Assembly: GCA_016765495.1 (NCBI GenBank)
Contig: JAESPV010000035.1
Coordinates: forward strand, 133,472-166,862
Origin: Desulfocapsa sp.
GTDB lineage: Bacteria; Desulfobacterota; Desulfobulbia; Desulfobulbales; Desulfocapsaceae
Direction: 5' to 3'
Length of the DNA: 33,391 nt
The first letter of the stretch is position 1. The number at the start of each line of letters is the position of its first letter. A program made the position numbers and the translations under genes. Shown one piece after another: positions 14,810 through 33,172 of the stretch. A model generated the notes under the pieces. The model saw only the letters and a program-made list of their open reading frames with translations, did not search any database and had not been told where the DNA came from.

Positions 14810-14811
14810 CT

Positions 14812-17276: not shown

Positions 17277-18523
17277 CAATCTTCTTGTTTTTTGTCCCGA
17301 CTTTCATTCTTATAATCGTATTTTCCATACCATACAGCATCCCGAAAAGCACGGGGAGATGTATTGCCTTCAGTACTGATAAGTAACACAACAGAGGTTT
17401 TTCCTAACCCCAGTTGTTTACGCAGCCGGGCAGGATTGCCGGTTGTTGATTCCATCAGTAAGTGGAGCAGACCGGTGGTGACCGCGCCGGACTCACCCGA
17501 GATTAGCACATCGTCACCTTTCAATGGAGTCGCTAACACTCGCATCCCTGTGGCGGCAAGATAATCGGGGCAGGAAGCATAAGCCGCAGCATAATCACGC
17601 AACAATTCCCAACTGATGGTGTTGGGTTCACCGCAGGCCAGACCCGCCATAAGCGTATCAAGCTCACCGCTTACATTATGAGCTTTCCCGTCACCAATTT
17701 GAGCAGATTTATAAATGCAGTTTGCTTTTTCCGGTTCAACGATTGTTATTTTCGGCATTTTTTTTCCAAGTCTGGAGGCAAAAAAGCCAAGCACACCACC
17801 GGCAAAGGATCCAACCCCGGCCTGAAGAAACACATGGGTCGGTTGCGCGATTCCTTGTTTCTGAAGCTGTTCCAGGGCTTCAACAGCTAAGGTTGCATAG
17901 CCCTGCATGATCCATGTTGGAATGGCTTCATATCCGGCCCAGGCTGTATCCTGAACGACGACCCAATTGTTTTCTTTAGCTTTTTTTTCAGCCAGTCGAA
18001 CTGCATCGTCATAGTTTAAATCGGTTATAGAAGCTTGAGCACCAAGATCCTGGATATTCTTCAGCCTCACCGGATCTGAACCTTTGGGCATATAAACAAC
18101 AGCCTTTTGCTTCAGTTGTTTGGCTGCCCAGGCAACAGCACGCCCGTGGTTGCCATCAGTTGCTGTGGCAAAGGTGATATCGCCAAGTTGTTTTCGAACA
18201 GTCACTGAACGTAACTCTTCATAGGAAATATCGGAAATATCCTTATCCAATTTTTCGGCCAGATAACGACCGATGGCATAGGATGCACCAAGGACCTTGA
18301 ACGCATTAAGACCAAAACGTGAAGATTCATCTTTAACAAAAAGTTTATCGATGCCGAGATATTCTGCAAGATTGGGCAGTGATACCAATGGGGTGGGTTC
18401 ATATTCCTTGAAACTTTTATGATACGCACGAGCTTTCTCTGCTTCTTCTGTGGTAAGGATGTTGAGATTAGCCCCCTCCCCCGGTTCTTTCAAATTTTTG
18501 TTAAAAATGTAGTCTATGGACAT
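17276..18523 (-). CDS. ygeX: 2,3-diaminopropionate ammonia-lyase YgeX
   Basis: The 415-aa PLP enzyme splits 2,3-diaminopropionate to pyruvate and two ammonia. It shows fold-type II features: the Schiff-base lysine Lys76 in RFGLNAFKVLGASYAIG, the substrate/phosphate segment TDGNHGRAVAWAA, the glycine loop QAGVGSFAGGVLG, and SGESGAVTTGLLHLL near the C-terminus. Length fits YgeX (398 aa in E. coli) with a slightly longer tail (NESRDKKQED). The start is set by AGGAGAG 7 nt upstream, which overlaps the ridA stop codon. In the purine-degradation cluster it is the terminal step that yields pyruvate. It releases 2-aminoacrylate as an intermediate, which explains the adjacent ridA. Confidence 0.95.
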   Translation of the reverse strand: MSIDYIFNKNLKEPGEGANLNILTTEEAEKARAYHKSFKEYEPTPLVSLPNLAEYLGIDKLFVKDESSRFGLNAFKVLGASYAIGRYLAEKLDKDISDISYEELRSVTVRKQLGDITFATATDGNHGRAVAWAAKQLKQKAVVYMPKGSDPVRLKNIQDLGAQASITDLNYDDAVRLAEKKAKENNWVVVQDTAWAGYEAIPTWIMQGYATLAVEALEQLQKQGIAQPTHVFLQAGVGSFAGGVLGFFASRLGKKMPKITIVEPEKANCIYKSAQIGDGKAHNVSGELDTLMAGLACGEPNTISWELLRDYAAAYASCPDYLAATGMRVLATPLKGDDVLISGESGAVTTGLLHLLMESTTGNPARLRKQLGLGKTSVVLLISTEGNTSPRAFRDAVWYGKYDYKNESRDKKQED

Positions 18524-18535
18524 AGGTTCTCTCTC

Positions 18536-18916
18536 CTATGCCATTGCAATGGCATCTATTTCAACTTTAGCACCCAATGGCAGAGCTGCCACCTGAACAG
18601 TTGCGCGCGCAGGATAGTTTCCGGTAAAGAAGCTTGCATACATGTCATTTATTGCCGCAAAATCGGCCAGATCAGTTACAAAAATTCCGCAACGGACTAC
18701 CTGTTCCATGGACGAGCCAGCCTCTTTGAGAATTGCCTTAATATTATTCATACTTTGCTCGGTCTGCACACTGACATCATCATCCATCTCCTTTGTTTCG
18801 GGATTTAATGGAAGTTGGCCGGATACATAGATGGTGTCACCATGTTGGACAGCCTGGGAGTAGGGTCCAATTGCTGCGGGGGCATTTGGGGTGCTGATGA
18901 TATTTTTTTTTGACAT
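18536..18916 (-). CDS. ridA: RidA-family enamine/imine deaminase
   Basis: The 126-aa protein has the standard YjgF/YER057c/UK114 family length. It hydrolyses reactive 2-aminoacrylate and related imines to keto acids. Seen are the N-terminal STPNAPAAIGPYSQAVQHGDTIYVSGQ segment, the middle VVRCGIFVTDLADFAAIN and the catalytic-arginine strand PARATVQVAALPLGAKVEIDAIA. AGGAGA lies 6 nt before the ATG. It is the first gene of the minus arm and its stop overlaps the ygeX ribosome-binding site, so RidA is made together with the lyase that generates its substrate. Confidence 0.95.
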   Translation of the reverse strand: MSKKNIISTPNAPAAIGPYSQAVQHGDTIYVSGQLPLNPETKEMDDDVSVQTEQSMNNIKAILKEAGSSMEQVVRCGIFVTDLADFAAINDMYASFFTGNYPARATVQVAALPLGAKVEIDAIAMA

Positions 18917-19204: not shown

Positions 19205-20416
19205 ATGGCTAAGCTTAACTTTGATAAAATAACTGAACTTGCTAAAACATACGAACCTGAAATGACCAGATTCCTGCGGGATATGGTTGCCATACCGAGC
19301 GAAAGCTGTGATGAAGAAAAAGTAATTCTTCGAATTAAAGAAGAAATGGAAAAGGTTGGTTTTGATAAAGTTGAAATCGACCCCATGGGCAATATCCTTG
19401 GTTATATCGGTTCCGGCCCACGCTTGATAGCCTTTGATGCCCACATTGATACTGTCGGTGTTGGCGTTGCCGGAAACTGGAATTTTGATCCTTACGAAGG
19501 TTACGAAGACGATGAATGCATTGGTGGCCGGGGAACTTCCGATCAGGAAGGGGGGATGGCATCCATGGTTTATGCAGGTAAAATCATCAAAGACCTTGGC
19601 CTTGCCGATGATGGATACACTGTTGTTATGACAGGAACAGTTCAGGAAGAGGACTGCGATGGTTTATGCTGGCAGTACATCATTAACGAACTTGGCCTGA
19701 AACCGGAATTTGTGGTTTCCACTGAACCAACCGATGGCGGGATTTATCGTGGCCAGCGAGGTCGCATGGAAATCCGTGTTGATGTGGAAGGCATCTCCTC
19801 CCATGGTTCCGCACCTGAACGAGGCGACAATGCCATCTTTAAAATGGCAAAAATTTTAAATGAACTTGAAGTGTTACACACGGAACTTGCAGATGATCCG
19901 TTCCTTGGCAAAGGATCACTCACTGTTTCTCAGATATTTTACACATCTCCATCACGTTGTGCTGTGGCCGATGGCTGTTCAATCTCCATCGACAGGCGTC
20001 TCACTGTTGGAGAAGATGCAAAACTTGCCATGTCTCAGATTGCAAATCTCCCTGCTGCAAAAGCTGCAAATGCCAAGGTGAGCATGTATAAGTACGATAC
20101 TCCTGCTTATACCGGCCTTGTTTATCCCACGGATTGCGATTTTCCATCATGGGTTGTGGCAGAAGACCATCCGGCAGTTCAGGCAACAGCAGCAGCTTAC
20201 TCATCACTCTTTAAAACTGCTCCCCGCATCGACAAGTGGACTTTTTCCACAAATGGTGTGGCTATAACTGGTATGCATGGTATCCCAACAGTCGGCTTTG
20301 GCCCGGGAAAAGAAGCTGAGGCACACGCGCCAAACGAGAAAACATGGAAGGCTGATCTTGTTCGCTGCGCTGCTTTGTATGCAGCCCTCCCCAGTGTTTA
20401 TGTAGAAAAGAATTAA
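19205..20416 (+). CDS. ygeY: YgeY, M20-family putative selenium-metabolism hydrolase
   Basis: The 403-aa protein has the same length as E. coli YgeY and belongs to the M20 metallohydrolases (ArgE/DapE/carboxypeptidase G2 type). The di-metal ligands are all present: His80 and Asp82 in DAHIDTVG, Asp113 in GTSDQEGG, the catalytic Glu148 with ligand Glu149 in QEEDCDG, Glu174 in STEPTDGG, and His374 in EAEAHAPNE. It probably removes an acyl or carbamoyl group from a ring-opened purine product, upstream of YgeX, but the substrate is not proven. The ribosome-binding site is weak (GAGAG about 11 nt upstream). It is the first gene of the plus arm. Confidence 0.92.
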
Positions 20417-20429
20417 GGCCATACCGACT

Positions 20430-21380
20430 GTGAAAAAACAGCTTGCTGTGATTGCCATTGGAGGCAATTCCCTGATTAAGCATCGGGAAAAACAAACGGT
20501 GGAAGATCAGTACAATGCAATTTGCGAGACAATTAAACACCTTGTTGACCTTGTTGAATTGGATTATCAATTAATTATCACCCATGGTAATGGGCCGCAG
20601 GTTGGTTTTATCATGCTGCGCTCAGAAATTGCCCGTGACCAGATTGGGCTGCACATTGTCCCTTTAAGTTCCTGTGTGGCAGATACCCAAGGGGCGATTG
20701 GTCTTCAGATTCAACAGGCCTTAACTGATGAGCTGCAAAACCGTCAACTGGATGCAAAAGCTGTAACCATTGTCACTCAGGTTGTAGTGAGTCCAACTGA
20801 CCCCGGTTTTGTTGTCCCGGATAAACCAATTGGTGAATTTTATCCTGAAGAAAAGCTTGCAAAGCTCAAGGAGCAGCACCCTGACTGGATATTAAAGCAG
20901 GATGCCAATCGTGGCTATCGCAGGGTCGTTGCATCGCCTTTGCCCTTGGTAATCGTGGAAGAAGAGGCTGTTGTTGCCCTCCTTGAAAATGGTTTTCATG
21001 TTGTGACTGCGGGAGGTGGCGGGGTACCTGTTGTTCGGAGTGATATCGGCCTTACAAGTGTTGATGCTGTGATCGATAAAGATAAGACTGCCTCTCTTCT
21101 TGCCACCAACTTGCATGCACCCCTGCTTGTTATTTCCACAGCAATAGAGCAGGTTATGCTGAATTTTGATACTGCTGAAGAGAAAGCTCTTGGCCAGGTA
21201 TCAGTGGCAGATATGGAAAAATATCTTTATGACGGCCATTTTGCACCGGGTTCCATGGCTCCCAAAATTGAAGCTGCCATTGACTTTATCAAAAATGGCG
21301 GAAAAAAAGTAATCATCACGAACCCCGAAAATATAGGCAAAGCTATTTGCCATGGTAAGGGAACTCAGATAATCCCTTAA
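20430..21380 (+). CDS. yqeA: carbamate kinase (YqeA/ArcC family)
   Basis: The 316-aa amino-acid-kinase-fold enzyme converts carbamoyl phosphate and ADP to ATP, CO2 and ammonia. Seen are the N-terminal glycine loop AIGGNSLI (residues 8-15), ITHGNGPQVG near 50, the AGGGGVPVV loop, the SVDAVIDKDKTASLLATNL segment and the C-terminal FIKNGGKKVIITNPENIGKAI. The start is GTG at 20430, 14 bp after the ygeY stop, with a weak upstream AAGG. With the carbamoyltransferase downstream it supplies ATP by substrate-level phosphorylation. The gene symbol follows its cluster context; arcC-like naming would also be correct. Confidence 0.95.
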   Translation: MKKQLAVIAIGGNSLIKHREKQTVEDQYNAICETIKHLVDLVELDYQLIITHGNGPQVGFIMLRSEIARDQIGLHIVPLSSCVADTQGAIGLQIQQALTDELQNRQLDAKAVTIVTQVVVSPTDPGFVVPDKPIGEFYPEEKLAKLKEQHPDWILKQDANRGYRRVVASPLPLVIVEEEAVVALLENGFHVVTAGGGGVPVVRSDIGLTSVDAVIDKDKTASLLATNLHAPLLVISTAIEQVMLNFDTAEEKALGQVSVADMEKYLYDGHFAPGSMAPKIEAAIDFIKNGGKKVIITNPENIGKAICHGKGTQIIP

Positions 21381-21398: not shown

Positions 21399-22595
21399 AT
21401 GGACAAACTGGGAATTGAACAATTAATCAGGGAACTTTCCACACTTGATTATCAGAATATGTATAATGATGATTTTCTCCTGACCTGGGAAAAATCAGAC
21501 GATGAAATCAGCGCCACCTTTACCGTGGCAGAAATCCTGCGCGGTATGCGGGAACAGAATATTTCCAGCCGTGTTTTTGATTCGGGTCTGGGCGTTTCCC
21601 TGTTTCGTGATAATTCCACTCGTACCCGTTTCAGTTTCACCAGTGCCTGTAATCTCCTTGGCCTGGAAGTTCAGGATCTTGATGAGGGAAAGTCACAGAT
21701 TGCCCATGGTGAAACTGTCCGTGAAACTGCTAACATGATCTCCTTCATGGCTGATGTTATCGGTATCCGCGATGATATGTATATTGGAAAGGGCAACGCC
21801 TACATGCGCAATGTTGCACAATCTGTCCAGATCGGCCATGAGGAAGGAGTGCTTGAACAGCGTCCGACCCTTGTGAACCTGCAGTGCGACATCGATCATC
21901 CCACCCAGTCCATGTCTGACATGCTGCATATCATCAAACACTTTGGCGGGGTAGAAAATCTTGCAGGGAAAAAGATTGCCATGTCCTGGGCCTACTCTCC
22001 ATCTTATGGTAAACCCCTGTCTGTGCCCCAGGGAATAATCGGTCTGATGACCCGTTTTGGAATGAACGTAGCCCTTGCTCACCCCGAAGGATATGAAGTT
22101 ATGCCTGAAGTTGAGGAAGTCGCTGCCAGACAGGCTGCTGAAGCTGGTGGAACATTTAGCAAATCAAACTCCATGGCTGAAGCATTTCAGGATGCGGATA
22201 TTGTGTATCCTAAAAGCTGGGCACCATATGCTGCAATGGAAAAACGTACTGATCTCTATGGCAATGGTGATATGGACGGTATTAAAGCCCTTGAGCAGGA
22301 GTTACTTGGCCAGAACAAAAAACATATGGATTGGACCTGCACAGAAGAGCTTATGGCCACCACCCATAATGGATCTGCTCTGTACATGCATTGTCTGCCG
22401 GCTGACATTACCGGAGTCTCCTGCGAACATGGTGAGGTCGAGGCCTCGGTTTTTGATCGTTATCGGGTACCACAGTATAAAGAAGCCAGCTATAAACCTT
22501 ATATTATTGCTGCAATGATCTTTCTCTCCAGGATGAAAAATTCTGCAGATGTATTGCAAGGCCTGATGGAGCGTGCGACTCCAAGAACACTGTAA
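21399..22595 (+). CDS. ygeW: knotted carbamoyltransferase YgeW
   Basis: The 398-aa protein is close in length to E. coli YgeW (396 aa). The carbamoyl-phosphate loop is STRTR (residues 73-77) inside FRDNSTRTRFSF. The second phosphate motif is HPTQ (167-170) with SMSDMLHI, and the C-terminal MHCLPAD carries Cys332. The long internal segments fit the knotted transcarbamylase subfamily rather than ornithine or aspartate carbamoyltransferase. In the anaerobic purine cluster it would run in the direction that makes carbamoyl phosphate from a ureido compound, feeding the kinase upstream; 2,3-diureidopropionate has been proposed as a related intermediate. AGGAG lies well placed before the ATG. Confidence 0.95.
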   Translation: MDKLGIEQLIRELSTLDYQNMYNDDFLLTWEKSDDEISATFTVAEILRGMREQNISSRVFDSGLGVSLFRDNSTRTRFSFTSACNLLGLEVQDLDEGKSQIAHGETVRETANMISFMADVIGIRDDMYIGKGNAYMRNVAQSVQIGHEEGVLEQRPTLVNLQCDIDHPTQSMSDMLHIIKHFGGVENLAGKKIAMSWAYSPSYGKPLSVPQGIIGLMTRFGMNVALAHPEGYEVMPEVEEVAARQAAEAGGTFSKSNSMAEAFQDADIVYPKSWAPYAAMEKRTDLYGNGDMDGIKALEQELLGQNKKHMDWTCTEELMATTHNGSALYMHCLPADITGVSCEHGEVEASVFDRYRVPQYKEASYKPYIIAAMIFLSRMKNSADVLQGLMERATPRTL

Positions 22596-22629
22596 GAAGT
22601 AGTTGCAGACTTGCATAAAGAGGGGGGCT

Positions 22630-25185
22630 ATGATTGAACTAACGCTTAACGGTAAGGGAACACAATACACAGGTGACGAGGATGTTTCTCTACTCTCCTG
22701 GTTACGCAATGATAAAAACCTGACTGCAGCCAAAGACGGTTGTTCAGGACAGGCTGCATGTGGAGCTTGTCTGGTGGAGGTGGATAAAAAGGCAGTCCTT
22801 GCCTGTGCAACCCCCATGAAAAAAGTTGCGGGCAAGAACGTTGTCACCCTTGAAGGGGTGCCCGAGTCCCTTTTACAGACCCTTGGCAAGGCATTTGCTG
22901 GCAGTGGCGCAGTACAGTGTGGGTTTTGTACACCCGGATTTTTAACCAGAACCAAAATTTTACTGGCAAAAAATGATACCCCCACCAGAGCCGAGGTTTT
23001 AAAAGCATTACAGTTCAATCTCTGTCGCTGTACCGGCTATGTGAAGATTGTTGATGCGGTCATTGCCGCAGCAACTGCCCTCCGAGAAGAAAAAGACACT
23101 CCCTTTGAAGACAAGGCAGGCATTGGTGTATCGAGTCCAAAATTTAAGGCGGTTGAGCGGGCCATTGGCCGTAAGCCCTTTACTGATGATTTACGCTTTG
23201 AAGGTATGCTCCATGGCGCGTTGAAATTTTCCGATCATCCGAGGGCCAAAATCCTCTCCATCGATGTGAGTGTTGCAGAAAAACAACCCGGCGTAAAACG
23301 TGTTTTTCTTGCCGCTGATATTCCAGGTAAACGTAACTCCGGACTTATTGTTGAAGATTGGCCCTTAATGATAAAGCAGGGAGAAATTACCCGCTATATC
23401 GGAGATGTGCTGGCATCCGTTGTTGCTGAAACCGAGGCTCAGGCAAGAGCAGCCGTGGAATTCATTGCAGTTGAGTATGAGGTTCTTGAACCACTCACCG
23501 ACATGCTGAAGGCTCTTGACAGTCCGATCAAAATCCACGAAAGCGGTAATCTTCTTGGTGAAAAAATCATACAACGTGGCGATACCGCCAGGCTGTTTGC
23601 AGAATCTGCTTTTACTGCAAAGGGAACCTACACAACCCCGACCATTGACCACGGATTCCTTGAAATGGAATGTTGTGTTGTTATCCCCAAAAAGAATGGA
23701 ATAAAAGTCTTTTCCCAGAGTCAGGGGCCGTATCGTGAACGTGATGAAATTGCCCAGCAGCTGGCTCTTTCAGAGGATCAGGTCGAAGTCGAAATTGTTG
23801 ACTGCGGTGGTGCTTTTGGCGGAAAGGAAGATATTACGGTACAGGGACACGCAGCCCTTGCCTGTCATCTGCTGCAGACCCCTGTAAAATACAAACTCAC
23901 CAGACCTCAATCCATCCGCATGCATCCCAAACGTCATCCAACCAGTATGGATTATGAAATTGGTTGTGACGCGAAGGGCATGCTCACTGCCTTGCATGCA
24001 AGAATTATTGGTGATACCGGTGCGTACGCCTCTGTCGGCGGACCGGTTATGGATCGTGCCGGAACGCATGCCTCCGGCGGATACCACTTTGAAGCTGTGG
24101 ATATTGCGGCACGATCTGTGTACACCAACAATATTCCCTGCGGTGCCATGCGAGGATTTGGTGTTAATCAGGCCACATTTGCCCTTGAATGTTTAATTGA
24201 TGAGCTTTGCAAAAAAGGCGACTTTGACCGCTGGCAGTTCCGTTACGACAATGCCCTTGATATCGGTCGTATGCTGGCTCCTGGCCAGGTACTTACAGCA
24301 AGTGTGGGCCTTAAAGAAACATTGGAAAGTGTTAAAGAGGCCTATGATAAAGCCAGGTATAAAGGACTTGCCTGTGCCGTGAAAAATTGTGGTGTGGGCA
24401 ACGGTATCCCTGAACTCAGCAGGGTTGTCATTGAAATCCATGAAGGCGGCAAGATCATCCTTCACCATGGCTGGACAGAGATGGGACAGGGAGTGCACAC
24501 CATTGCACAGCAGGTTCTTTGCGAGGCAACAGGAATAACAGATATTGACCTGATCACTCCTGTTGTCACCACTGCATCCGGTGCCATTGGCGGCCCTACA
24601 ACTGCAAGCCGTGGAACCTTACTTCTTGGACGTGCCATCATCGATGCTGCGAAAAATCTGCAAGAGGACCTCAAAGAAAAATCACTTGAGGAACTTGCAG
24701 GCCGTACATACAAAGGTGAATTTTTCTGCGATTATACCCAGGCAGATGGGAAACCCGGTGAGATCATCTCTCACATTTCCTATGGTTATGCCACCAATCT
24801 CGCAATTCTTGACGATGACGGCAAGCTGGAAAAAGTCATTGCCTCCCATGATGCCGGAAAAATTCTTAATCCAAAACTGTTTCAAGGTCAGATCGAGGGC
24901 GGGGTCGCCATGGGCATTGGCTATGCCCTCACTGAAAAAGTACCCCTCAAAGACGGTAAACTCACTTCGGATAAATACAGAGCACTCGGTATTCCAAAGA
25001 TGAATAAATTACCGGCAATTGAGGTAATTGGTGTTGAATCCGATGATCCGGAAGGGCCATATGGTGCCAAAGGTGTTGGTGAAATCGGTTGTATTGCCAC
25101 TGCCCCTGCCATTGCCAATGCTTTTTCTGATTATGACGGGAAGCGCAGATTTTCTCTACCGCTCAAACCAATCGATACGGAATAG
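22630..25185 (+). CDS. xdhD: selenium-dependent xanthine dehydrogenase, fused [2Fe-2S] and molybdenum domains
   Basis: The protein is 851 aa from the ATG at 22630, which has AGGGGGG just upstream; the frame is open from 22603 but the extra nine residues have no family match. The N-terminal domain (1-150) binds two [2Fe-2S] clusters: Cys38, Cys44, Cys47, Cys59 and Cys97, Cys100, Cys132, Cys134. The molybdenum domain has GGAFGGKED (393-401) and the catalytic-base motif GAKGVGE with Glu818. It matches the Se-dependent xanthine dehydrogenase family, which carries a labile, non-selenocysteine selenium at Mo. It would interconvert hypoxanthine, xanthine and urate. No FAD domain or FAD subunit gene is adjacent. 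The first cluster has one extra residue (C-x5-C instead of C-x4-C). The symbol follows E. coli context; that protein lacks canonical Fe-S cysteines. Confidence 0.9.
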   Translation: MIELTLNGKGTQYTGDEDVSLLSWLRNDKNLTAAKDGCSGQAACGACLVEVDKKAVLACATPMKKVAGKNVVTLEGVPESLLQTLGKAFAGSGAVQCGFCTPGFLTRTKILLAKNDTPTRAEVLKALQFNLCRCTGYVKIVDAVIAAATALREEKDTPFEDKAGIGVSSPKFKAVERAIGRKPFTDDLRFEGMLHGALKFSDHPRAKILSIDVSVAEKQPGVKRVFLAADIPGKRNSGLIVEDWPLMIKQGEITRYIGDVLASVVAETEAQARAAVEFIAVEYEVLEPLTDMLKALDSPIKIHESGNLLGEKIIQRGDTARLFAESAFTAKGTYTTPTIDHGFLEMECCVVIPKKNGIKVFSQSQGPYRERDEIAQQLALSEDQVEVEIVDCGGAFGGKEDITVQGHAALACHLLQTPVKYKLTRPQSIRMHPKRHPTSMDYEIGCDAKGMLTALHARIIGDTGAYASVGGPVMDRAGTHASGGYHFEAVDIAARSVYTNNIPCGAMRGFGVNQATFALECLIDELCKKGDFDRWQFRYDNALDIGRMLAPGQVLTASVGLKETLESVKEAYDKARYKGLACAVKNCGVGNGIPELSRVVIEIHEGGKIILHHGWTEMGQGVHTIAQQVLCEATGITDIDLITPVVTTASGAIGGPTTASRGTLLLGRAIIDAAKNLQEDLKEKSLEELAGRTYKGEFFCDYTQADGKPGEIISHISYGYATNLAILDDDGKLEKVIASHDAGKILNPKLFQGQIEGGVAMGIGYALTEKVPLKDGKLTSDKYRALGIPKMNKLPAIEVIGVESDDPEGPYGAKGVGEIGCIATAPAIANAFSDYDGKRRFSLPLKPIDTE

Positions 25186-25194
25186 GATACTCAA

Positions 25195-26475
25195 ATGACT
25201 CTCTATTTACAAAATGCCCAATACATTGATTCCCAAACACTTCAGGTCTCTTCCACCCATCTTGCCGTGGAAGTTGGTGCAACAGGTGGCGTCAAGCTGA
25301 TAGATGTAATTCCTCCCACAGATGAACGCAAAGATGGCGACCGGGTAATTGACTGCAAGGGCCGATTTGTTACCCGCTCCTTTGCCTGCGGTCATCACCA
25401 TATCTATTCTGCCCTTTGTCGGGGAATGCCGGCACCTCCTCAAATCCCCACAAACTTTCCCGAAGTTCTCGAATATGTCTGGTGGCGGGTGGATGCCCGG
25501 CTCGACAAGGACATGGTTGAGGCCAGTGCCCTTGCAGCTGCCCTGCAGATGGCGCGCAGAGGGGTCACATTCTGTATCGACCATCACGCATCTCCCATGC
25601 ATGTTGAGGGCAGCCTGGAAACCGTTGCCAGTGCCTTTGAAAAATGTGGAATTGGCCATCTCATGTGTCATGAATCATCTGACCGAAATGGTGCCGAACT
25701 TGCAGAAAAAAGCCTTGCCGAGCATGATTCATACCTTGCCTCGGGGCGTCCCGGCCTCATCGGCCTCCATGCCTCGTTTACAGTGGGCGATGATCTTTTT
25801 GAAAAATCAGTGAACCTTGCCAAAAAATACAACACCGGCCTGCATGTTCACGTGGCTGAAGATATTGCAGATGAAGTACACTGTGAAAAAACCTATAACA
25901 AACGGGTGGCAGAACGACTTCGTGATCTTGGGGGGCTTGAAAGCTCCAAAACCATCCTTGGTCACTGCGTGCATTGCAATGATAGGGAGCGAAAAATAAT
26001 TGCAGACTCTCCGGTATGGGTTGTTTCCAATGTTGAATCCAATCAAAATAATAACGTGGGTCTCACCGATTATGACTGGCTGGACAACATCATGCTGGGC
26101 ACAGACGGCATGCATAACGATATGCTGCGATCTGCCAAGGCTCACCATCTTGTCTGTTCCACCACGGGCGGCATTGGTTACGATGAAGTGTATCGTCGTT
26201 TCCGTAATGTTCATACCTATCTTGGACAGTTTGAAGGTGTTGGCGACGATCTGAATAATCTTGTTATTCTGGATTATGATACTCCCACCGAAGTAAGCGA
26301 TGAAAATTTCTATGGCCACTTTCTTTTCGGTCTGGAAGCCCTCCATGTGAATACGGTTATTGCACAGGGCCGGGTGATTATAGAAGAACGGAAATCAACA
26401 CTTGTGGATGAAGAAGAAGTTCTTTCCCATGCTCAAGAACAGGGAAAACGCCTCTGGGCAAAGCTTAGCGAGTAG
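25195..26475 (+). CDS. ssnA: SsnA, putative aminohydrolase of the SDMH/purine cluster
   Basis: This 426-aa amidohydrolase-superfamily protein is related to guanine and chlorohydrolase-type deaminases. Metal and catalytic residues are seen at His67/His69 (CGHHHIYSAL), His217/His219 and Glu222 (HVHVAED), His257/His260 (LGHCVH) and Asp304 (GTDGM), the expected order for a mononuclear deaminase. The N-terminal composite domain begins LYLQNAQYID. SsnA is a marker of selenium-dependent molybdenum hydroxylase clusters. Its substrate is not firmly established; ring amine or amide hydrolysis in purine breakdown fits. It starts 9 bp after the xanthine dehydrogenase stop, with GGA upstream. Confidence 0.93.
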   Translation: MTLYLQNAQYIDSQTLQVSSTHLAVEVGATGGVKLIDVIPPTDERKDGDRVIDCKGRFVTRSFACGHHHIYSALCRGMPAPPQIPTNFPEVLEYVWWRVDARLDKDMVEASALAAALQMARRGVTFCIDHHASPMHVEGSLETVASAFEKCGIGHLMCHESSDRNGAELAEKSLAEHDSYLASGRPGLIGLHASFTVGDDLFEKSVNLAKKYNTGLHVHVAEDIADEVHCEKTYNKRVAERLRDLGGLESSKTILGHCVHCNDRERKIIADSPVWVVSNVESNQNNNVGLTDYDWLDNIMLGTDGMHNDMLRSAKAHHLVCSTTGGIGYDEVYRRFRNVHTYLGQFEGVGDDLNNLVILDYDTPTEVSDENFYGHFLFGLEALHVNTVIAQGRVIIEERKSTLVDEEEVLSHAQEQGKRLWAKLSE

Positions 26476-26478
26476 ATT

Positions 26479-27876
26479 ATGAGTAGACTGGTGGCAGGCG
26501 GTACGGTGGTGACAGCCACTAAAACTTTTCAATCAGATATTCTGATTGAAGAGGGACGTATTGTTGGTATCGGTGAAAATATTGATCGTAAAAGCAGTCA
26601 GGAAATTGTTGATGCAACGGGCTGTTATGTCATGCCCGGTGCCATTGATGTTCACACTCACTTAAACTTAAACCTTGGTGAAGAAAAGGTCAGTGATGGT
26701 TTTTACCATGGTTCTGTGGCTGCTGCCCATGGCGGAACCACCTCCATTGTGGAGCATCCCGGCTTTGGGCCTGCCCATTGCGCACTGAACCATCAAATGG
26801 ATCTGTATCGTGATCAGGCCAAAGATGAGATGGTCGTTGATTACGGGTTTCATGGTGTTGTTCAACATGTTGATGAGCATGTGCTCTCTGCGATCAAAGG
26901 GTTAACGGCAACCGGGATTTCCAGCCTGAAGGTTTATCTTACCTATGGTGGCCGCCTTGGTGATGAAGATATCATTAAAGTAATGAAAGCCACCCATGCA
27001 GCCGGCGGGCTGACAGCGTTTCACGCAGAAAATCACGCAATAATAGGCGAGTTAACACAAGAGATAAGGGATAAGGGCGATATTACAGATCCTGCAAATC
27101 ATCCCAGAAGCCGACCGGATTATTCCGAGGCTGAAGCCGTTAACAGACTCATTGCTCTTTCCCGCGCAGCCGGTAATGCGCCTATCTATATTGTCCATCT
27201 TTCCACTGCCTCAGGGCTTGAAATAATAAAGGAAGCCAGAAGAAACGGGTTCCAGATCCATGTTGAAACCTGTCCCCAATACCTGACTCTTACAGAGAGC
27301 TGCTACCAGGAAGCTGATAATAAAAGACTGCAATATATAATGTCTCCACCGCTCAGGACACAAAAGGATTGTGATGCCTTGTGGGAAGGTCTTGCAGATG
27401 GAAGCATCGATGTGGTTGCCACCGATCACTGCTCATTTTCTTTTGCGCAAAAACTGAAAAACGGGAAAACGGATATCTTTAAAGCTCCCGGTGGCATCCC
27501 TGGCGTTGAAACCCGTGTGCCGCTTCTTTTTTCAGAGGGCGTGTTAAAAAATCGCATTGATCTGAACCGCTTTGTTCAGCTTGTTGCCACAAATCCGGCA
27601 ACTATTATGGGACTGGCACCGCAAAAAGGCTCCATCGATATCGGATCGGACGCGGATCTTATGATATTTGATCCTGAGATAGAAAAAATTATCAGCACGC
27701 AAGTCCTGCATCAGCATGTGGATTACACCCCGTTTGCAGGAATGCGTGTAAAGGGCTGGCCCAAAACAGTTCTGCTTCGGGGAGAAGTTCTGGTTTGTGA
27801 TGGAAAACTATCTGCTACTAAAGGTTTTGGCAGATTTATCAATCGTAGAAAGAATAAGTACTTAGTAAAAGTATAA
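26479..27876 (+). CDS. hyuA: HyuA, hydantoinase/dihydropyrimidinase-type cyclic amidohydrolase
   Basis: The 465-aa cyclic amidase has the full dinuclear zinc site of dihydropyrimidinases: His59 and His61 (DVHTHLN), carbamylated Lys151 (SLKVYLTYGG), His182 (FHAENH), His240 (IVHLST) and Asp316 (ATDHCSF). These positions match D-hydantoinase almost residue for residue. It is E. coli HyuA-like (465 vs 461 aa) and likely opens a cyclic amide in a purine-derived ring. The start is 3 bp after the ssnA stop, so it is co-translated. A 213-bp gap with repeats follows it. Confidence 0.93.
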   Translation: MSRLVAGGTVVTATKTFQSDILIEEGRIVGIGENIDRKSSQEIVDATGCYVMPGAIDVHTHLNLNLGEEKVSDGFYHGSVAAAHGGTTSIVEHPGFGPAHCALNHQMDLYRDQAKDEMVVDYGFHGVVQHVDEHVLSAIKGLTATGISSLKVYLTYGGRLGDEDIIKVMKATHAAGGLTAFHAENHAIIGELTQEIRDKGDITDPANHPRSRPDYSEAEAVNRLIALSRAAGNAPIYIVHLSTASGLEIIKEARRNGFQIHVETCPQYLTLTESCYQEADNKRLQYIMSPPLRTQKDCDALWEGLADGSIDVVATDHCSFSFAQKLKNGKTDIFKAPGGIPGVETRVPLLFSEGVLKNRIDLNRFVQLVATNPATIMGLAPQKGSIDIGSDADLMIFDPEIEKIISTQVLHQHVDYTPFAGMRVKGWPKTVLLRGEVLVCDGKLSATKGFGRFINRRKNKYLVKV

Positions 27877-28089: not shown

Positions 28090-30918
28090 ATGAAAAAAGA
28101 CCTCTTTTTCTGCACAGATATTGACGTTCTTCTCAAATGGATCCTCACTGATCTGGAAGAACGAAATGAAATATTCGGCATCGCTAAAGAACAATTTTTC
28201 ACTCCCGGCCCAGCCGATCCCTTTCGCATGCATCGCTATGGAAAACTCCTGGAAACTCCCCTTGGTGCAGCCTCTGGCCCTCATACCCAGCTTGCCCAGA
28301 ACATTGTCGCGGCCTGGCTCACCGGTGGTCGTTATATCGAACTGAAAACCATCCAGGTGCTTGATGAACTCGATGTGACCAAGCCCTGCATTGATATGAC
28401 CGATGAGGGCTATAACTGCGAATGGTCACAGGAGTTAAAACTCGATGAATCCTTTAACGAGTACTTAAATGCTTTTATTCTGCTCTACATCTTAAAAGAT
28501 ACACTTGGGTTCACTGGAGATGACGCCGGGTTTATCTTCAATATGAGTGCCGGTTATGAATTAAAGGGTATCCACAGTCCCACTGTTCAGCGGTTTTTTG
28601 ATCGTATGGAAGACTGCTCAAAAGAGCTTGCTGAAAAGATAGAAAAAATAGCCCATATCTACCCTCGTGTTAAAGAATTAAATATCCCCAGTCAGATATC
28701 GAACAACCTCACCATTTCCACCATGCATGGTTGCCCGCCGGAGGAAATAGAAAAAATAGCCCATTATTTTATTGAAGAGCGGGGCTATCACACCACCATC
28801 AAACTGAATCCAACCCTGCTTGGGCCTGAGCGCCTGCGAGATATCTTAAATAATCAGCTGAAATTTGATATTGATGTTCCGGATCTTGCCTTTGAGCACG
28901 ACTTGAAATACCCCGATGCAATCAATCTGATAAACTCTCTACTTGATTCCGCTCAAACAAAGGGCGTTGAATTCAACATCAAACTGACAAATACCCTTGA
29001 AACAACCAATATTAACCAGAAACTGCCAAAGACTGAGGCCATGTGTTACATGTCCGGTCGGGCACTGCATCCCATCAGCATAAACCTTGCTGCACGTTTA
29101 CAAGAAGAGTTTGCTGGTAAGCTCGATATTTCTTTCTGTGCAGGTATTGACAACTTTAATATATTTGAAACTCTAACCTGTGGAATGGCACCCGTTACTG
29201 TTTGTTCAGATCTTCTTAAACCTGGTGGATATGCTCGTGTGAAGCAGTATGCGGACACTGTACTTGAGGGGATGAAGGAAGCTGGTGTAAGTTCCATTGA
29301 ACAACTGGTTTGTAACTGGGCGGGCATGGAAGATAGAGCTGCTGCGGGACTGAATAATATAAGAAACTATGCTGCAAGCGTTGTTGACTCGGGCAATTAC
29401 GCTAAAGATCTGTTCCCTTACCAAAATGTTAAAACCAAACGTCCTTTATTACGATTTGACTGTGCAGGCGCCCCATGTGTGACCAGTTGCGGGGCCTCTC
29501 AGGATGTACCGCGCTATATGAATTATACGGCTCGTGGAGATTTTAAAAATGGTTATAAAACCATCCTTGCCACCAACCCCTTTCCCAACATGCAGGGCAT
29601 GGTTTGTGATCACCCCTGTCAGGGAAAATGTACCAGAATAAATTACGATTCACCTTTGCTTATCCGTGAAATCAAACGATTTATTGCCGAGAGCCAGAAA
29701 GAAGAGATTAAACTCATCCCGCAGGCAGATAACGGAAAAACTGTTGCCATTATCGGTGCCGGGCCATCTGGACTTTCAGCGGCATTCTTTCTAAGACTGG
29801 AGGGCTTTCAGGTCCATATCTACGAATCCAAAGCATTTCCTGGAGGCAGGGCTGCCGATGCTGTTTCAGATTTTCAGCTCGCTGAGAACATTCTGAAAAA
29901 AGATATTGATCCTATTCTTGCACTTGGTGCCCGCCTGCATACGGGCGTGAAAGTTGATAAAGCAAAATTCGCAAAGATTCGAGATTCCAATGATTTTGTC
30001 TATATTGCAAGCGGTTCCCAGAAAGGAAGCAGCTTGAATTTTCTCCCGGAAGCTGAGCTCAGTGTTGATAGAAAGACCCTGCGAACAACTCTGCCCTTTG
30101 TGTTTGCAGGGGGAGATGTGATTGAGACTTCCTCGCTCATTAACGCCATTGGTCATGGCAAAAGGGTAACAGAATCCATTCTGGCCACATCCGGGTTTTC
30201 GTCAAAGCTTGATATCGCACCGGCAGATGATCGTAAGCTGGATCTGACCAGGCTGCAAAAGCAAAATGCAACCCGAATATTTGGTGTAAATATTCATCAA
30301 TCTGCTCCAGAAGAAGGTTTGACTTTTGCTCCTTATACAGCAACTCTCAGTAAGGAAGAGGCAATGGCTGAGGCCGCCCGCTGTCTGCAATGTGATGTTG
30401 TTTGCAATATCTGCGTAACTGTTTGTCCTAACAGAGCAAATGTTGCTTTGAAAGCTGATCCGGTGACGTATCCTCTGCAGACTATTCTTGCAGATGGCAG
30501 GATTGAAACCAGTGGACAGATTGAACTTACTCAGGCGTATCAAATTATAAATATTCCTGATTTCTGCAATGAGTGTGGCAATTGCAGAACCTTTTGTCCA
30601 ACGAGTGGTGCGCCCTATTTTGCTAAATCTCACGTCCACCTTTCCGCTGCAAGCCTTGAGGCACACGGGGAAGGCTTTTTTATGGCAGAACCGGGTATGA
30701 TGCAAATTATGGCAGGTGGTAAAAAGTCCACTCTCACTGATAAGGGTGAAACATTTCTTTTTGAAGATGCGGAAGTAAGGTTTAGTCTTGCTAAGAAATC
30801 ACTGGAAGCATCAAAAGTAGAATTGAAAGGAGATGTGAAGAATAAAAAATTACGGAGAGTGGCCGAAGCAGCAATTTTATTTAATTTATTGGATGGAAGA
30901 AGCCCCTATTTCCGATGA
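28090..30918 (+). CDS. ygfK: YgfK-like Fe-S flavoprotein (putative selenate reductase subunit) lacking the NAD(P)H domain
   Basis: The 942-aa protein aligns with E. coli YgfK (1032 aa). Residues 1 to about 430 form the dihydroorotate dehydrogenase-like barrel (GAASGPHTQLAQN, STMHGCPPEEIE, KLNPTLLG). A GltD-type Fe-S region follows (Cys458, 463, 467, 506, 510, 514), then an FAD-binding Rossmann motif GAGPSG (556-561). C-terminal ferredoxin-like cysteines are C768-x3-C772-x2-C775-x3-C779-P and C826-x2-C829-x2-C832-x3-C836-P. Between Gln644 (IASGSQ) and Leu668 (LPFVFAGGD) only about 23 residues remain where E. coli YgfK has roughly 150 that contain the second, NAD(P)H-binding GxGxxA motif. The frame is intact, so this looks like a clean domain loss. 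YgfK presumably exchanges electrons with the molybdenum enzyme. AGGA precedes the start. Confidence 0.9.
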   Translation: MKKDLFFCTDIDVLLKWILTDLEERNEIFGIAKEQFFTPGPADPFRMHRYGKLLETPLGAASGPHTQLAQNIVAAWLTGGRYIELKTIQVLDELDVTKPCIDMTDEGYNCEWSQELKLDESFNEYLNAFILLYILKDTLGFTGDDAGFIFNMSAGYELKGIHSPTVQRFFDRMEDCSKELAEKIEKIAHIYPRVKELNIPSQISNNLTISTMHGCPPEEIEKIAHYFIEERGYHTTIKLNPTLLGPERLRDILNNQLKFDIDVPDLAFEHDLKYPDAINLINSLLDSAQTKGVEFNIKLTNTLETTNINQKLPKTEAMCYMSGRALHPISINLAARLQEEFAGKLDISFCAGIDNFNIFETLTCGMAPVTVCSDLLKPGGYARVKQYADTVLEGMKEAGVSSIEQLVCNWAGMEDRAAAGLNNIRNYAASVVDSGNYAKDLFPYQNVKTKRPLLRFDCAGAPCVTSCGASQDVPRYMNYTARGDFKNGYKTILATNPFPNMQGMVCDHPCQGKCTRINYDSPLLIREIKRFIAESQKEEIKLIPQADNGKTVAIIGAGPSGLSAAFFLRLEGFQVHIYESKAFPGGRAADAVSDFQLAENILKKDIDPILALGARLHTGVKVDKAKFAKIRDSNDFVYIASGSQKGSSLNFLPEAELSVDRKTLRTTLPFVFAGGDVIETSSLINAIGHGKRVTESILATSGFSSKLDIAPADDRKLDLTRLQKQNATRIFGVNIHQSAPEEGLTFAPYTATLSKEEAMAEAARCLQCDVVCNICVTVCPNRANVALKADPVTYPLQTILADGRIETSGQIELTQAYQIINIPDFCNECGNCRTFCPTSGAPYFAKSHVHLSAASLEAHGEGFFMAEPGMMQIMAGGKKSTLTDKGETFLFEDAEVRFSLAKKSLEASKVELKGDVKNKKLRRVAEAAILFNLLDGRSPYFR

Positions 30919-31721
30919 AAAATTTAACAATCATCATGCGGGGCGCAGGAGACTTGGCAACAGGTGTGGCACTAAGGCTCCATCGTTCAGGATTCAGACG
31001 TTTATTGCTTCTTGAAACAGAGCATCCCCTTGCAGTTCGTCGCCTGGTTTCTTTTTCAGAAGCAATTACTATTGAAAAAGTCTCCATCGAAAATGTTACA
31101 GCCATGCGCGTTAACGTTCATGATGTTGGAATACCTGGGCAATGGCCACCGGATGATACTATTCCAATTATAATTGATCCCTCTGGTAAAAGTATCCAGA
31201 AAATTCAACCGCATATTGTTATTGATGCTATTATAGCCAAGCGAAATCTCGGTACCGGTATCAATGATGCCGAACTTGTCATCGGTCTTGGCCCCGGTTT
31301 TACAGCTGGAAAAGATGTGAACTGTGTCATTGAAACCAAACGTGGTCATAATCTTGGCAGGGTCATTTATGATGGCACGGCAGCCGCTGATACAGGAATC
31401 CCTGGAAACATCGGTGGCTATACCAATGAACGTCTGTTACGGGCGCCAAATGCAGGAATATTTAAGACAAATTTTAATATCGGTGACAAGGTAGAAAAAG
31501 GAGAGTGCTTAGCCATGGTAGACTCTTCACCGGTGATTGCAAATATTTCCGGTGTAATACGTGGGCTGCTGCGCTCTGCGACTCCGGTGGACAATAAAAC
31601 AAAGCTAGGAGACATTGACCCACGAGGCAAAGTAGCTTTTTGTACCACGGCATCGGATAAGGCCATGGCTGTTGCTGGAGGCGTACTTGAAGCAATACTG
31701 CATAAATTCAATCGCATATAG
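30915..31721 (+). CDS. yqeB: YqeB, selenium-dependent molybdenum hydroxylase maturation protein
   Basis: The 268-aa protein matches the N-terminal half-length form of the YqeB family (E. coli YqeB is about twice as long). It begins with a Rossmann-type IIMRGAGDLATGVALRLHRSGF (residues 6-27). It continues with IVIDAIIAKRNLGTGINDAELVIGLGPGFTAGKDVNCVIETKRGH and a biotinyl-like IGDKVEKGECLAMVD segment. YqeB is a genomic marker for labile selenium in Mo hydroxylases and is thought to help place or activate selenium at the Mo site; the chemistry is unproven. The start overlaps the ygfK stop as ATGA. Confidence 0.93.
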   Translation: MKNLTIIMRGAGDLATGVALRLHRSGFRRLLLLETEHPLAVRRLVSFSEAITIEKVSIENVTAMRVNVHDVGIPGQWPPDDTIPIIIDPSGKSIQKIQPHIVIDAIIAKRNLGTGINDAELVIGLGPGFTAGKDVNCVIETKRGHNLGRVIYDGTAAADTGIPGNIGGYTNERLLRAPNAGIFKTNFNIGDKVEKGECLAMVDSSPVIANISGVIRGLLRSATPVDNKTKLGDIDPRGKVAFCTTASDKAMAVAGGVLEAILHKFNRI

Positions 31722-31762: not shown

Positions 31763-33172
31763 ATGGGTACTACTGAAGAGAAGCAAACAATGACTGAATC
31801 GGAGTCGACTCCTTTTGATTCAGAACTCATTTTTGGTCTTGAAGACCGTCCCCCCGTTCATATTGCCTTCTTTGCAGCCATGCAGCATATGCTTGCCTCC
31901 ATTGTCGGTATTGTAACCCCTCCCATCATTATCAGTAATGCTTTGGGGCTCGATGTATCCGATGCATCCTATATTATCAGCATGACTCTACTCATTTCTG
32001 GAATTGCCACTTTTATCCAGGCAAAACGGATGGGGCCGGTGGGTTCCGGGCTGCTTGCCATGCAGGGAACAAGTTTTGCTTTCTTAGGCCCGATAATCGG
32101 GGCTGCCATTGCTATTAAAAATCAAGCCGATGCCCATACTGCACTCGCCGTAGTCTTTGGCTGTGTAATGGCCGGTTCCTTTATTGAAATGTTTATCAGT
32201 CGTTTTCTACATCTGGCGCAAAAAATCATTACCCCTGTTGTCACAGGCGTTGTGGTAACTCTGATCGGTCTGACCTTGATTAAGGTTGGCCTGGTGAGTA
32301 TGGCCGGTGGCTTTTATGTGATGAATAATGTTCCCGAAGCCTTTGCCAGTTTGCAAAACCTTGGAATCGCCTTTCTGGTACTTGCTATCATTGTGGCGCT
32401 GAACATGAGCAGAAACCAATACCTGCGCATGTCTTCCATCGTCATTGGATTAGCTGTCGGCTATGTTCTGGCAGCAGCTCTCGGTATGGTCAATTTTTCC
32501 AAGCTTTCAGGAATGAGCTTATTCACTATCCCTCAACCTCTCAAATACGGCATCGATTTTTCCTGGGGTGCATTCTTTGCCATCGGGCTTGTTTATGTGA
32601 TCACCGCCGTTGAGTCCATTGGTGACCTGACAGCCACTTCCATGATATCGAAGCAGCCTGTGAAGGGTGAGCTTTACATGAGTCGAATTAAAGGCGGTGT
32701 ACTGGCAGATGGCATTAACTCTTTCATAGCCGGTTTGTTCAATACCTTCCCCAATACCACCTTCAGCCAGAATAACGGTGTTATCCAGTTAACTGGTGTT
32801 GCCAGTCGTTATGTTGCCTATTTTATAGCAGGGATTCTCATTCTAATGGGGCTCTCACCCTTTCTTGCCGGAGTTTTCCGCATTATGCCGGAACCTGTTC
32901 TCGGTGGTGCCACTATCCTGATGTTTGGTACTGTTGCAGCCGCGGGAGTGAAGATCCTCGCCACCCAGAAACTGGACAATCGTGCGACCTTAATTATTGC
33001 AGTATCCTTAGGGTTGGGTTTAGGGGTCACCATGGTTCCCGAAGTGTTGAAAAACTTTGCCCCGGTTGAGATCAGAAACGTCTTTGCCTCGGGTATTACC
33101 ACAGGAGGTTTGACGGCAATTATTTTGAATCTTGTGCTTCCTCATAAAAAAATTCAAGTAATTAAGCATTAA
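31763..33172 (+). CDS. NCS2-family purine permease (XanQ/UacT-like)
   Basis: The 469-aa inner-membrane nucleobase:cation symporter has about 12-14 membrane segments. Family signatures are DRPPVHIAFFAAMQHMLAS (conserved His of helix 1), AMQGTSFAFLGP, AVESIGDLTATSMIS (the substrate-binding Glu, equivalent to XanQ Glu272) and SQNNGVIQLTGVASRYV. The QNNG signature is the purine (xanthine/urate) type, not the GENIG form of uracil carriers, so uptake of xanthine or uric acid is likely. Several prokaryotic xanthine permeases have the same N-terminal FxLEDRPP. It is last in the plus arm and supplies the pathway substrate. GGGG lies about 10 nt before the ATG. No clear terminator follows. Confidence 0.92.
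   Translation: MGTTEEKQTMTESESTPFDSELIFGLEDRPPVHIAFFAAMQHMLASIVGIVTPPIIISNALGLDVSDASYIISMTLLISGIATFIQAKRMGPVGSGLLAMQGTSFAFLGPIIGAAIAIKNQADAHTALAVVFGCVMAGSFIEMFISRFLHLAQKIITPVVTGVVVTLIGLTLIKVGLVSMAGGFYVMNNVPEAFASLQNLGIAFLVLAIIVALNMSRNQYLRMSSIVIGLAVGYVLAAALGMVNFSKLSGMSLFTIPQPLKYGIDFSWGAFFAIGLVYVITAVESIGDLTATSMISKQPVKGELYMSRIKGGVLADGINSFIAGLFNTFPNTTFSQNNGVIQLTGVASRYVAYFIAGILILMGLSPFLAGVFRIMPEPVLGGATILMFGTVAAAGVKILATQKLDNRATLIIAVSLGLGLGVTMVPEVLKNFAPVEIRNVFASGITTGGLTAIILNLVLPHKKIQVIKH

What the first reader, a model, noticed from the sequence alone, without database searches (positions are those of the whole stretch)
28090..30918. YgfK homologue that has lost its NAD(P)H-binding domain
The frame is intact through the FAD motif (556-561) and the IASGSQ strand (638-644), then moves after about 23 residues to LPFVFAGGD (668-676), which is the terminal FAD-contact strand. 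In E. coli YgfK these two strands are separated by a whole Rossmann domain with a second GxGxxA motif and an arginine-rich NADPH-phosphate segment. All Fe-S ligands are kept. This predicts a YgfK that cannot use NAD(P)H directly and instead links the Mo enzyme to ferredoxin or another Fe-S carrier.
Basis: partly seen in the sequence, partly recalled or inferred. Interest (0 to 1): 0.75.

Follow-up and report, generated by a model that had tools for sequence, protein, structure and literature searches.

The report
Uric-acid enzyme without its NAD(P)H module
In some Desulfocapsa-like bacteria, a gene related to an enzyme of oxygen-free uric-acid breakdown has cleanly lost the part that binds NAD(P)H while keeping its barrel domain and all conserved iron-sulfur cysteines, so the enzyme is likely powered by a ferredoxin-type electron carrier instead.

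Summary
Window 28090-30918 is an intact 942-residue YgfK-type gene without the NAD(P)H-binding Rossmann domain: the YgfK profile matches at 9-639 and again at 794-968 of 1012. It is not an assembly error. The gap recurs in 15 protein clusters and five genomes of two families. Full-length relatives occur in the same genus, and one (P0004) falls in the clade that holds the short forms. The AlphaFold model shows no replacement for the missing module at the gap.

Independent signs support loss of NAD(P)H use. The IPx[FYL]RL loop is intact in 105 of 105 full and 0 of 16 short proteins. Fer4_20 and the first FAD half changed about twice as often, relative to the rest, as in full relatives. The 15 Fe-S cysteines and FAD glycines are kept.

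The neighbours give a candidate for each step of reductive uric-acid breakdown. YgfK is therefore most likely a yanthine reductase (shown for E. coli, PMC12507026), not a carrier for the Mo enzyme. Best reading: a switch to a one-electron donor, probably ferredoxin. The donor is inferred; one or two losses is open (p-AU 0.101).

The parts
28090..30918 (+). YgfK-derived yanthine reductase (predicted), 942 aa, without the NAD(P)H-binding domain
   Evidence: ORF; TIGR03315 9-639 and 794-968 of 1012; tree among full-length YgfK
28168..29367 (+). residues 27-426: FMN-type TIM barrel (predicted substrate site)
29458..29706 (+). residues 457-539: Fer4_20 (DPD domain II type) with Cys 458, 463, 467, 506, 510, 514
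   Evidence: Pfam PF14691; Cys kept 16 of 16 short; accelerated change in the short clade
29755..29772 (+). residues 556-561: FAD GxGxxG motif, intact
   Evidence: G556, G558, G561 16 of 16 short
29863..29880 (+). residues 592-597: decayed IPxFRL loop (here VSDFQL)
   Evidence: IPx[FYL]RL 105 of 105 full, 0 of 16 short; the same loop reads GIPEYRL / GIPQYRL in two solved Nfn/Stn-type proteins
30001..30117 (+). residues 638-676: deletion junction; about 150 residues of NAD(P)H domain missing between IASGSQKGSS and LNFLPE
   Evidence: alignment; no helix of 4 or more or strand of 3 or more residues between 639 and 671 in the model, pLDDT under 50 at 644-647
30382..30597 (+). residues 765-836: C-terminal ferredoxin segment, 9 conserved Cys
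   Evidence: Cys 765, 768, 772, 775, 779, 826, 829, 832, 836 kept 16 of 16
16036..16629 (-). MocA-like molybdenum cofactor cytidylyltransferase
   Evidence: TIGR03310, 177.0 bits, just under the cut-off of 186.45
17276..18523 (-). YgeX, diaminopropionate ammonia-lyase (pathway end: pyruvate)
   Evidence: TIGR03528 622.2 bits, over cut-off 532.25
18536..18916 (-). Rid-family deaminase
   Evidence: TIGR00004 174.6 bits, over cut-off
19205..20416 (+). YgeY hydrolase
   Evidence: TIGR03526 668.7 bits, over cut-off
20430..21380 (+). carbamate kinase
   Evidence: NF009007 406.8 bits, over cut-off
21399..22595 (+). YgeW carbamoyltransferase
   Evidence: TIGR03316 758.7 bits, over cut-off
22603..25185 (+). 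selenium-dependent xanthine dehydrogenase, 2Fe-2S plus Mo parts, no FAD subunit beside it
   Evidence: TIGR03311 906.5 bits, over cut-off; neighbourhood
25195..26475 (+). SsnA-like amidohydrolase
   Evidence: NF005540 334.4 bits, below cut-off 444, best family
26479..27876 (+). HyuA-type hydantoinase
   Evidence: TIGR02033 524.4 bits, over cut-off
30915..31721 (+). YqeB, selenium-dependent Mo-cofactor maturation
   Evidence: TIGR03309 342.4 bits, over cut-off
31763..33172 (+). xanthine-type permease
   Evidence: TIGR03173 440.6 bits, over cut-off

Best explanation
This is an intact, YgfK-derived gene, in a cluster with a candidate gene for each step of uric-acid degradation, that has lost the NAD(P)H-binding Rossmann domain of YgfK, and its enzyme is therefore likely to reduce yanthine at its FMN barrel with electrons from a reduced ferredoxin-type carrier instead of NAD(P)H. 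Shown here: the clean in-frame loss, its sharing by 16 sequences, kept Fe-S cysteines and FAD glycines, a conserved barrel, decay of the IPx[FYL]RL loop in every short protein examined, and faster change of the first Fe-S domain and first FAD half. From the literature: the E. coli enzyme acts on yanthine with NAD(P)H, coupled to SsnA. Inferred: electrons enter singly through the Fe-S clusters (or a still-bound FAD) and run to the FMN; the FAD has become a relay or a structural remnant; the donor is ferredoxin, possibly reduced by pyruvate:ferredoxin oxidoreductase acting on the pyruvate that the pathway itself would yield.
For: Domain gap in profile and alignments. Same gap in 15 of 120 listed clusters plus locus L093, against 105 full. 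Full-length P0004 falls in the same 17-row clade, support 100/99.

IPx[FYL]RL 105 of 105 full, 0 of 16 short. Fer4_20 plus first FAD half against barrel plus C-terminus: odds ratio of changes 2.05, short against full branches (column bootstrap 1.61-2.65; 0 of 2000 permutations as high). Near-invariant barrel columns kept at 98.9%, 15 Fe-S cysteines 16 of 16. Five of five short coding sequences read are open.

Pathway genes present. PFOR over cut-off in 10 of 10 genomes. Precedents: clostridial PydAc lacks FAD and NADPH domains and reduces uracil with reduced ferredoxin (PMC7332683, passages); FFTR keeps FAD, cannot use NADPH and takes electrons from ferredoxin (PMC12796991, passages).
Against: No donor was identified. 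No donor gene was recognised beside the short forms, whose core gene order matches that of the nearest full forms (many flanking ORFs were left unnamed). FAD glycines are conserved, so FAD may still be fed by a separate flavoprotein. PFOR is present in full-form genomes too, so it does not explain the loss. The dN/dS picture is mixed: the C-terminus is also raised in short pairs (0.16-0.25 against 0.10-0.13 in two computable full pairs) and the window-G041 pair shows no rise in the first FAD half (0.095). Yanthine reduction by a YgfK of these bacteria is unproven, and the SsnA-like partner scores below its family cut-off.
Confidence: 0.6

Rival explanations
1. The short YgfK is wired directly to the co-encoded xanthine dehydrogenase, whose 2Fe-2S part hands electrons from xanthine oxidation to the YgfK clusters, making the pathway self-balancing without soluble carriers.
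For: The xanthine dehydrogenase at 22603-25185 has Mo and 2Fe-2S parts and no FAD subunit beside it; it lies in the same cluster as YgfK in the short and full relatives whose contigs reach that far (L093 and L114 do not).
Against: The same enzyme without an adjacent FAD subunit accompanies full-length YgfK as well, so it does not track the domain loss. Each of ten genomes also has one FAD_binding_5 match over the cut-off that could serve it. In E. coli the Mo enzyme of the pathway reduces urate, that is, it consumes electrons (PMC12507026).
Confidence: 0.15
2. The NAD(P)H module now acts in trans: a separate flavoprotein of the Nfn/GltD type docks on the truncated FAD domain and supplies electrons from NAD(P)H.
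For: The genome holds other proteins that match the same part of the profile (L002, L003, L004, L005; 172-304 bits); FAD glycines are kept 16 of 16.
Against: No further ORF in the short loci examined was matched to YgfK at 1e-5; the IPx[FYL]RL loop, which two solved Nfn/Stn-type proteins share, has decayed in 16 of 16.
Confidence: 0.15
3. The gene is a decaying remnant that no longer works.
For: dN/dS of the first FAD half is higher in three short pairs (0.15-0.48) than in three full-full pairs (0.08-0.13), and that of the C-terminus is higher too (0.16-0.25 against 0.10-0.13).
Against: Near-invariant barrel columns kept at 98.9% and 15 Fe-S cysteines kept in 16 of 16; barrel dN/dS 0.07-0.11 in the short pairs; the form occurs in two families with neighbouring pathway genes kept as far as contigs reach.
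Confidence: 0.08
4. The gap is an assembly or sequencing artefact.
For: The window genome is a 108-contig draft with 7.28% estimated contamination.
Against: 15 distinct clusters from several sources and five genomes carry the gap with the same or related junctions.
Confidence: 0.01

Closest known systems
E. coli YgfK (NAD(P)H-dependent yanthine reductase, PMC12507026)
   Same: Barrel, Fer4_20, FAD and C-terminal ferredoxin segments align; shared pathway neighbours SsnA, HyuA, YgeW, YgeY, YgeX and YqeB.
   Different: About 150 residues of NAD(P)H-binding domain are gone and the IPxFRL loop has decayed; 717.7 bits against a cut-off of 835.3 for TIGR03315.
Clostridial PydAc and C. difficile UacX (no FAD or NAD(P)H domain)
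   Same: No NAD(P)H domain, FMN barrel; PydAc was shown to run on reduced ferredoxin (PMC7332683), and for UacX, modelled as PydAc-like, ferredoxin is proposed (PMC12507026).
   Different: They lack the whole FAD domain; the window protein keeps the FAD fold and glycines, and by descent it belongs with YgfK.
[quoted passage not shown]
   Same: A thioredoxin-reductase-type flavoprotein that keeps FAD, cannot use NADPH and takes electrons from ferredoxin; thioredoxin reductases are among the structural matches of the full YgfK model.
   Different: FFTR keeps a domain resembling the NADPH domain, with a CxxC, and reduces thioredoxin.
NfnI / NfnABC / GltD FAD-NAD(P)H modules
   Different: They are known (recalled) to carry the NAD(P)H domain; the short protein aligns with them over about 140 fewer residues than its full relative does.

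Membership tests
YgfK (TIGR03315) | score over the curated cut-off 835.3 | tested here: not met
   Window 717.7 bits; four other short forms 680.5-732.1; three full relatives 863.4-870.0; E. coli 1778.7
YgfK (TIGR03315) | descent: nested among full-length YgfK | tested here: met
   17-row clade with full-length P0004, support 100/99; 25-row clade with eight further full rows, 100
YgfK (TIGR03315) | FMN-type barrel | tested here: met
YgfK (TIGR03315) | conserved cysteines of Fer4_20 and C-terminal segments | tested here: met
   15 columns, 16 of 16 short
YgfK (TIGR03315) | FAD-binding motif | tested here: met
   G556, G558, G561, E579, G585, G586 16 of 16; D676 15 of 16
YgfK (TIGR03315) | NAD(P)H-binding Rossmann domain | tested here: not met
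YgfK (TIGR03315) | encoded in a reductive uric-acid cluster | tested here: met
   (SsnA-like and MocA-like below their cut-offs)
YgfK (TIGR03315) | NAD(P)H-dependent yanthine reduction | not testable with these tools
   needs purified protein
Ferredoxin-dependent PydAc/UacX type | FMN barrel and Fe-S segments without NAD(P)H domain | tested here: met
Ferredoxin-dependent PydAc/UacX type | FAD domain absent as well | tested here: not met
   FAD fold and motif present
Ferredoxin-dependent PydAc/UacX type | activity with reduced ferredoxin | not testable with these tools
   needs assay

The most novel reading that the evidence does not exclude
A living intermediate between the NAD(P)H-driven and ferredoxin-driven forms of anaerobic uric-acid breakdown: the pyridine-nucleotide module has been excised, possibly twice independently, from a multi-centre flavoenzyme, its facing loop has decayed, and the leftover FAD now passes single electrons from ferredoxin, or straight from xanthine dehydrogenase, to the purine-reducing FMN.
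Probability: 0.4. Interest if true: 0.72.

Novelty: new variant of a known kind. Interest (0 to 1): 0.58.

Why it matters
The reductive uric-acid pathway was worked out biochemically only recently (PMC12507026, 2025), and a commentary lists the physiological electron donor of its first enzyme, XdhAC, as an open question (PMC12990295). This variant bears on the donor of the second reduction. It is a natural domain deletion with full-length sisters in the same genus, so the NAD(P)H and ferredoxin options can be compared on closely related enzymes. It also shows how an enzyme may change its electron source by losing a module rather than gaining one. For annotation: five of five short forms scored fall under the YgfK cut-off, though some sources still name short forms 'putative selenate reductase' (P0003, P0015, P0017), a name that hides the change.

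Tried and rejected
Assembly error: rejected by independent sequences.

A replacement NAD(P)H fold elsewhere in the protein: none among the listed structural matches, which cover 27-426 and 460-706. The C-terminal strand-rich part (about 784-920) was barely tested by that search, so this is no proof.

A compensating gene beside the short form: none recognised. The run YgeY, carbamate kinase, YgeW, xanthine dehydrogenase, SsnA, HyuA, YgfK, YqeB is the same beside short forms (window, L107-L109, L093) and the nearest full forms (L110, L112-L115) as far as contigs reach. The permease is present in some and absent in others of both kinds, and three more distant full loci (L116-L118) differ in detail. 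ORFs were matched only to window proteins; many were left unnamed.

Rnf as ferredoxin source: RnfC over the cut-off in 0 of 10 genomes, short or full; weak matches below it in 10 of 10.

A single loss: neither shown nor rejected (p-AU 0.101; 3% of 200 bootstrap trees need one change). Two junction types (...GSS|LNFLPE and ...GVIDH|LDFLPE) fit two losses, or one loss with later trimming. DNA was at hand for five short genes only.

Survey artefacts corrected: in the pairwise measurement, E. coli (L119) and L039 looked short; searches show both carry the domain. L030 and L128 are cut by contig ends. Nine loci without an N-terminal match were left out, eleven more gave no match, and its 229 rows hold duplicates of the same genes.

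Rows dropped: the rate test used 15 of 16 short (P0021, long branch, left out) and 18 of 105 full; one search used all 16 short and the same 18 and points the same way. The second FAD half is little raised (1.26 relative to the barrel). One dN/dS value could not be computed (G158-G012, C-terminus).

Equivalence of R596 with Arg235 of pig dihydropyrimidine dehydrogenase is recalled only; the listings did not settle it, and nothing here rests on it.

Literature on a YgfK without the NAD(P)H domain: not seen in the listings (30 of 62 papers listed), nor in the variants section of PMC12507026. Its supplements were not read.
Full report
What is there. The ORF at 28090-30918 encodes 942 residues without a stop. 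TIGR03315 (YgfK) matches it at profile positions 9-639 and 794-968 of 1012, and the total of 717.7 bits lies under the cut-off of 835.3. Four other short forms score 680.5-732.1; three full relatives score 863.4-870.0 and E. coli YgfK 1778.7. In the alignment the strand IASGSQ is followed after a few residues by LNFLPE...LPFVFAGGD, where full proteins have about 150 more residues with a GxGNSAMDAA-type motif and a YRRTR-type segment.

How widespread. The protein search listed 120 of 7958 homologues; 15 of the 120 are short. In 193 genomes drawn from the same order, 13 had the gene at 1e-60: five short (window, G153, G177, G130, G183) and eight full, four of them in the same genus. In 395 genomes drawn across the phylum 6 had a match: the window, one same-genus full form and four others, none of them short as far as they could be read (one, G204, is cut off). 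Of 80 named genome loci 3 are short, 1 is cut off and 76 carry the dinucleotide motif. The 80 are the best of 555, so this sample leans to close relatives.

History. A tree of 72 rows puts the 16 short rows and the full-length P0004 in one clade (SH-aLRT 99), itself inside full-length sequences. A careful tree of 34 rows repeats this with 100/99 support for the 17 rows and needs two changes of state; holding the short rows together is not rejected (p-AU 0.101). There are two junction types. One loss or two cannot be decided.

What the rest of the protein did. I compared 16 short with 105 full sequences. The 15 cysteines of the Fe-S segments are kept in all. Of the columns conserved in 97% or more of full proteins, residues 1-450 keep 98.9% on average, Fer4_20 92.1%, the first FAD half 76.6%, the second FAD half 95.5% and the C-terminus 93.8%. 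The FAD glycines and Glu579 are kept 16 of 16. The loop IPx[FYL]RL is intact in 105 of 105 full and 0 of 16 short proteins. The same loop reads GIPEYRL and GIPQYRL in two solved Nfn/Stn-type proteins. On a fixed tree, Fer4_20 and the first FAD half changed about twice as often in short branches as expected from the barrel and C-terminus: odds ratio 2.05, bootstrap 1.61-2.65, 0 of 2000 permutations (15 short and 18 full rows, with all 16 short, points the same way). The second FAD half is raised only slightly (1.26) and the C-terminus not (0.93).

Codon test, a mixed result. dN/dS of the first FAD half is 0.15-0.48 in three short pairs and 0.08-0.13 in three full-full pairs, but 0.095 between the window and the full G041 gene. 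The C-terminus is also higher in short pairs (0.16-0.25) than in the two full pairs that could be computed (0.10-0.13). All values are under 1; dS is high in several pairs, so these are rough. Taken with the loop and the branch-length test, this fits an enzyme in which hydride transfer from NAD(P)H to FAD is no longer selected while the Fe-S and FMN chemistry is.

Setting. The window holds a candidate for each step of the reductive uric-acid pathway: MocA-like, YgeX and Rid on the minus strand; YgeY, carbamate kinase, YgeW, selenium-dependent xanthine dehydrogenase, SsnA-like, HyuA, YgfK, YqeB and a permease on the plus strand. MocA-like and SsnA-like fall below their cut-offs. Whether this xanthine dehydrogenase (TIGR03311) performs the urate step of E. 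coli XdhD was not tested. The core gene order is the same beside short forms and the nearest full forms as far as contigs reach. The xanthine dehydrogenase has no FAD subunit beside it in either. Each of ten genomes (five short, five full) has one FAD_binding_5 match over the cut-off; in five of them (G041, G158, G012, G130, G172) its position lies in a second xanthine dehydrogenase set downstream. All ten have pyruvate:ferredoxin oxidoreductase and none has RnfC over the cut-off.

Function. From PMC12507026 (abstract, passages and section 9 read): E. coli XdhD-YgfM reduces urate to yanthine; YgfK with SsnA and NAD(P)H converts yanthine to ureidomethyl-hydantoin, neither enzyme alone giving detectable product; C. 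difficile UacX lacks the FAD domain, and ferredoxin is proposed as its donor. From PMC7332683 (passages): PydAc, which lacks FAD and NADPH domains, reduces uracil with reduced ferredoxin. From PMC12796991 (passages): FFTR keeps FAD, cannot use NADPH and takes electrons from ferredoxin. I therefore read the window protein as a yanthine reductase that is likely ferredoxin-driven. The missing domain is shown; inability to use NAD(P)H directly is strongly suggested; ferredoxin as donor is inferred; a link of YgfK to the Mo enzyme is not supported by the E. coli work but is kept as a rival. From PMC12990295 (part 1 of 2 read): the donor of the first enzyme, XdhAC, is still unknown.

Verdict. Real, not an artefact; a new variant of a known enzyme, with a sharp experimental test. 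Not categorically new, because enzymes of this kind without a pyridine-nucleotide module have precedents in PydAc and UacX.

Noticed in passing
window 29458-29706 (residues 457-539): The first Fe-S segment of the YgfK proteins aligned here has six conserved cysteines, while Cys765 of an RCLQC motif after the FAD domain is a ninth one in the C-terminal segment; it may complete a cluster of the first segment.
   Followed up: no
window 14012-15966: An acyl-CoA dehydratase activase (TIGR00241) and a double-cubane-cluster reductase (NF040772), both over cut-off, lie just before the uric-acid cluster. Such pairs are known (recalled) to make very low-potential electrons. Whether the pair accompanies the cluster in relatives was not checked properly.
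   Followed up: no
L109, L111, L112, L113 downstream of YqeB or the permease: A second, multi-subunit xanthine dehydrogenase set follows the cluster in relatives; the window's contig ends before this point.
   Followed up: partly
genomes G177, G130, G183 (another family of the order): Their short YgfK genes fall in a clade with sequences of the window's genus while G172 of the same family has a more distant full form, which suggests transfer of the gene or cluster between families.
   Followed up: no
L028, L049, L055: Three full-length YgfK proteins have GLSAVDA in place of the usual GNSAMDA in the NAD(P)H motif.
   Followed up: no
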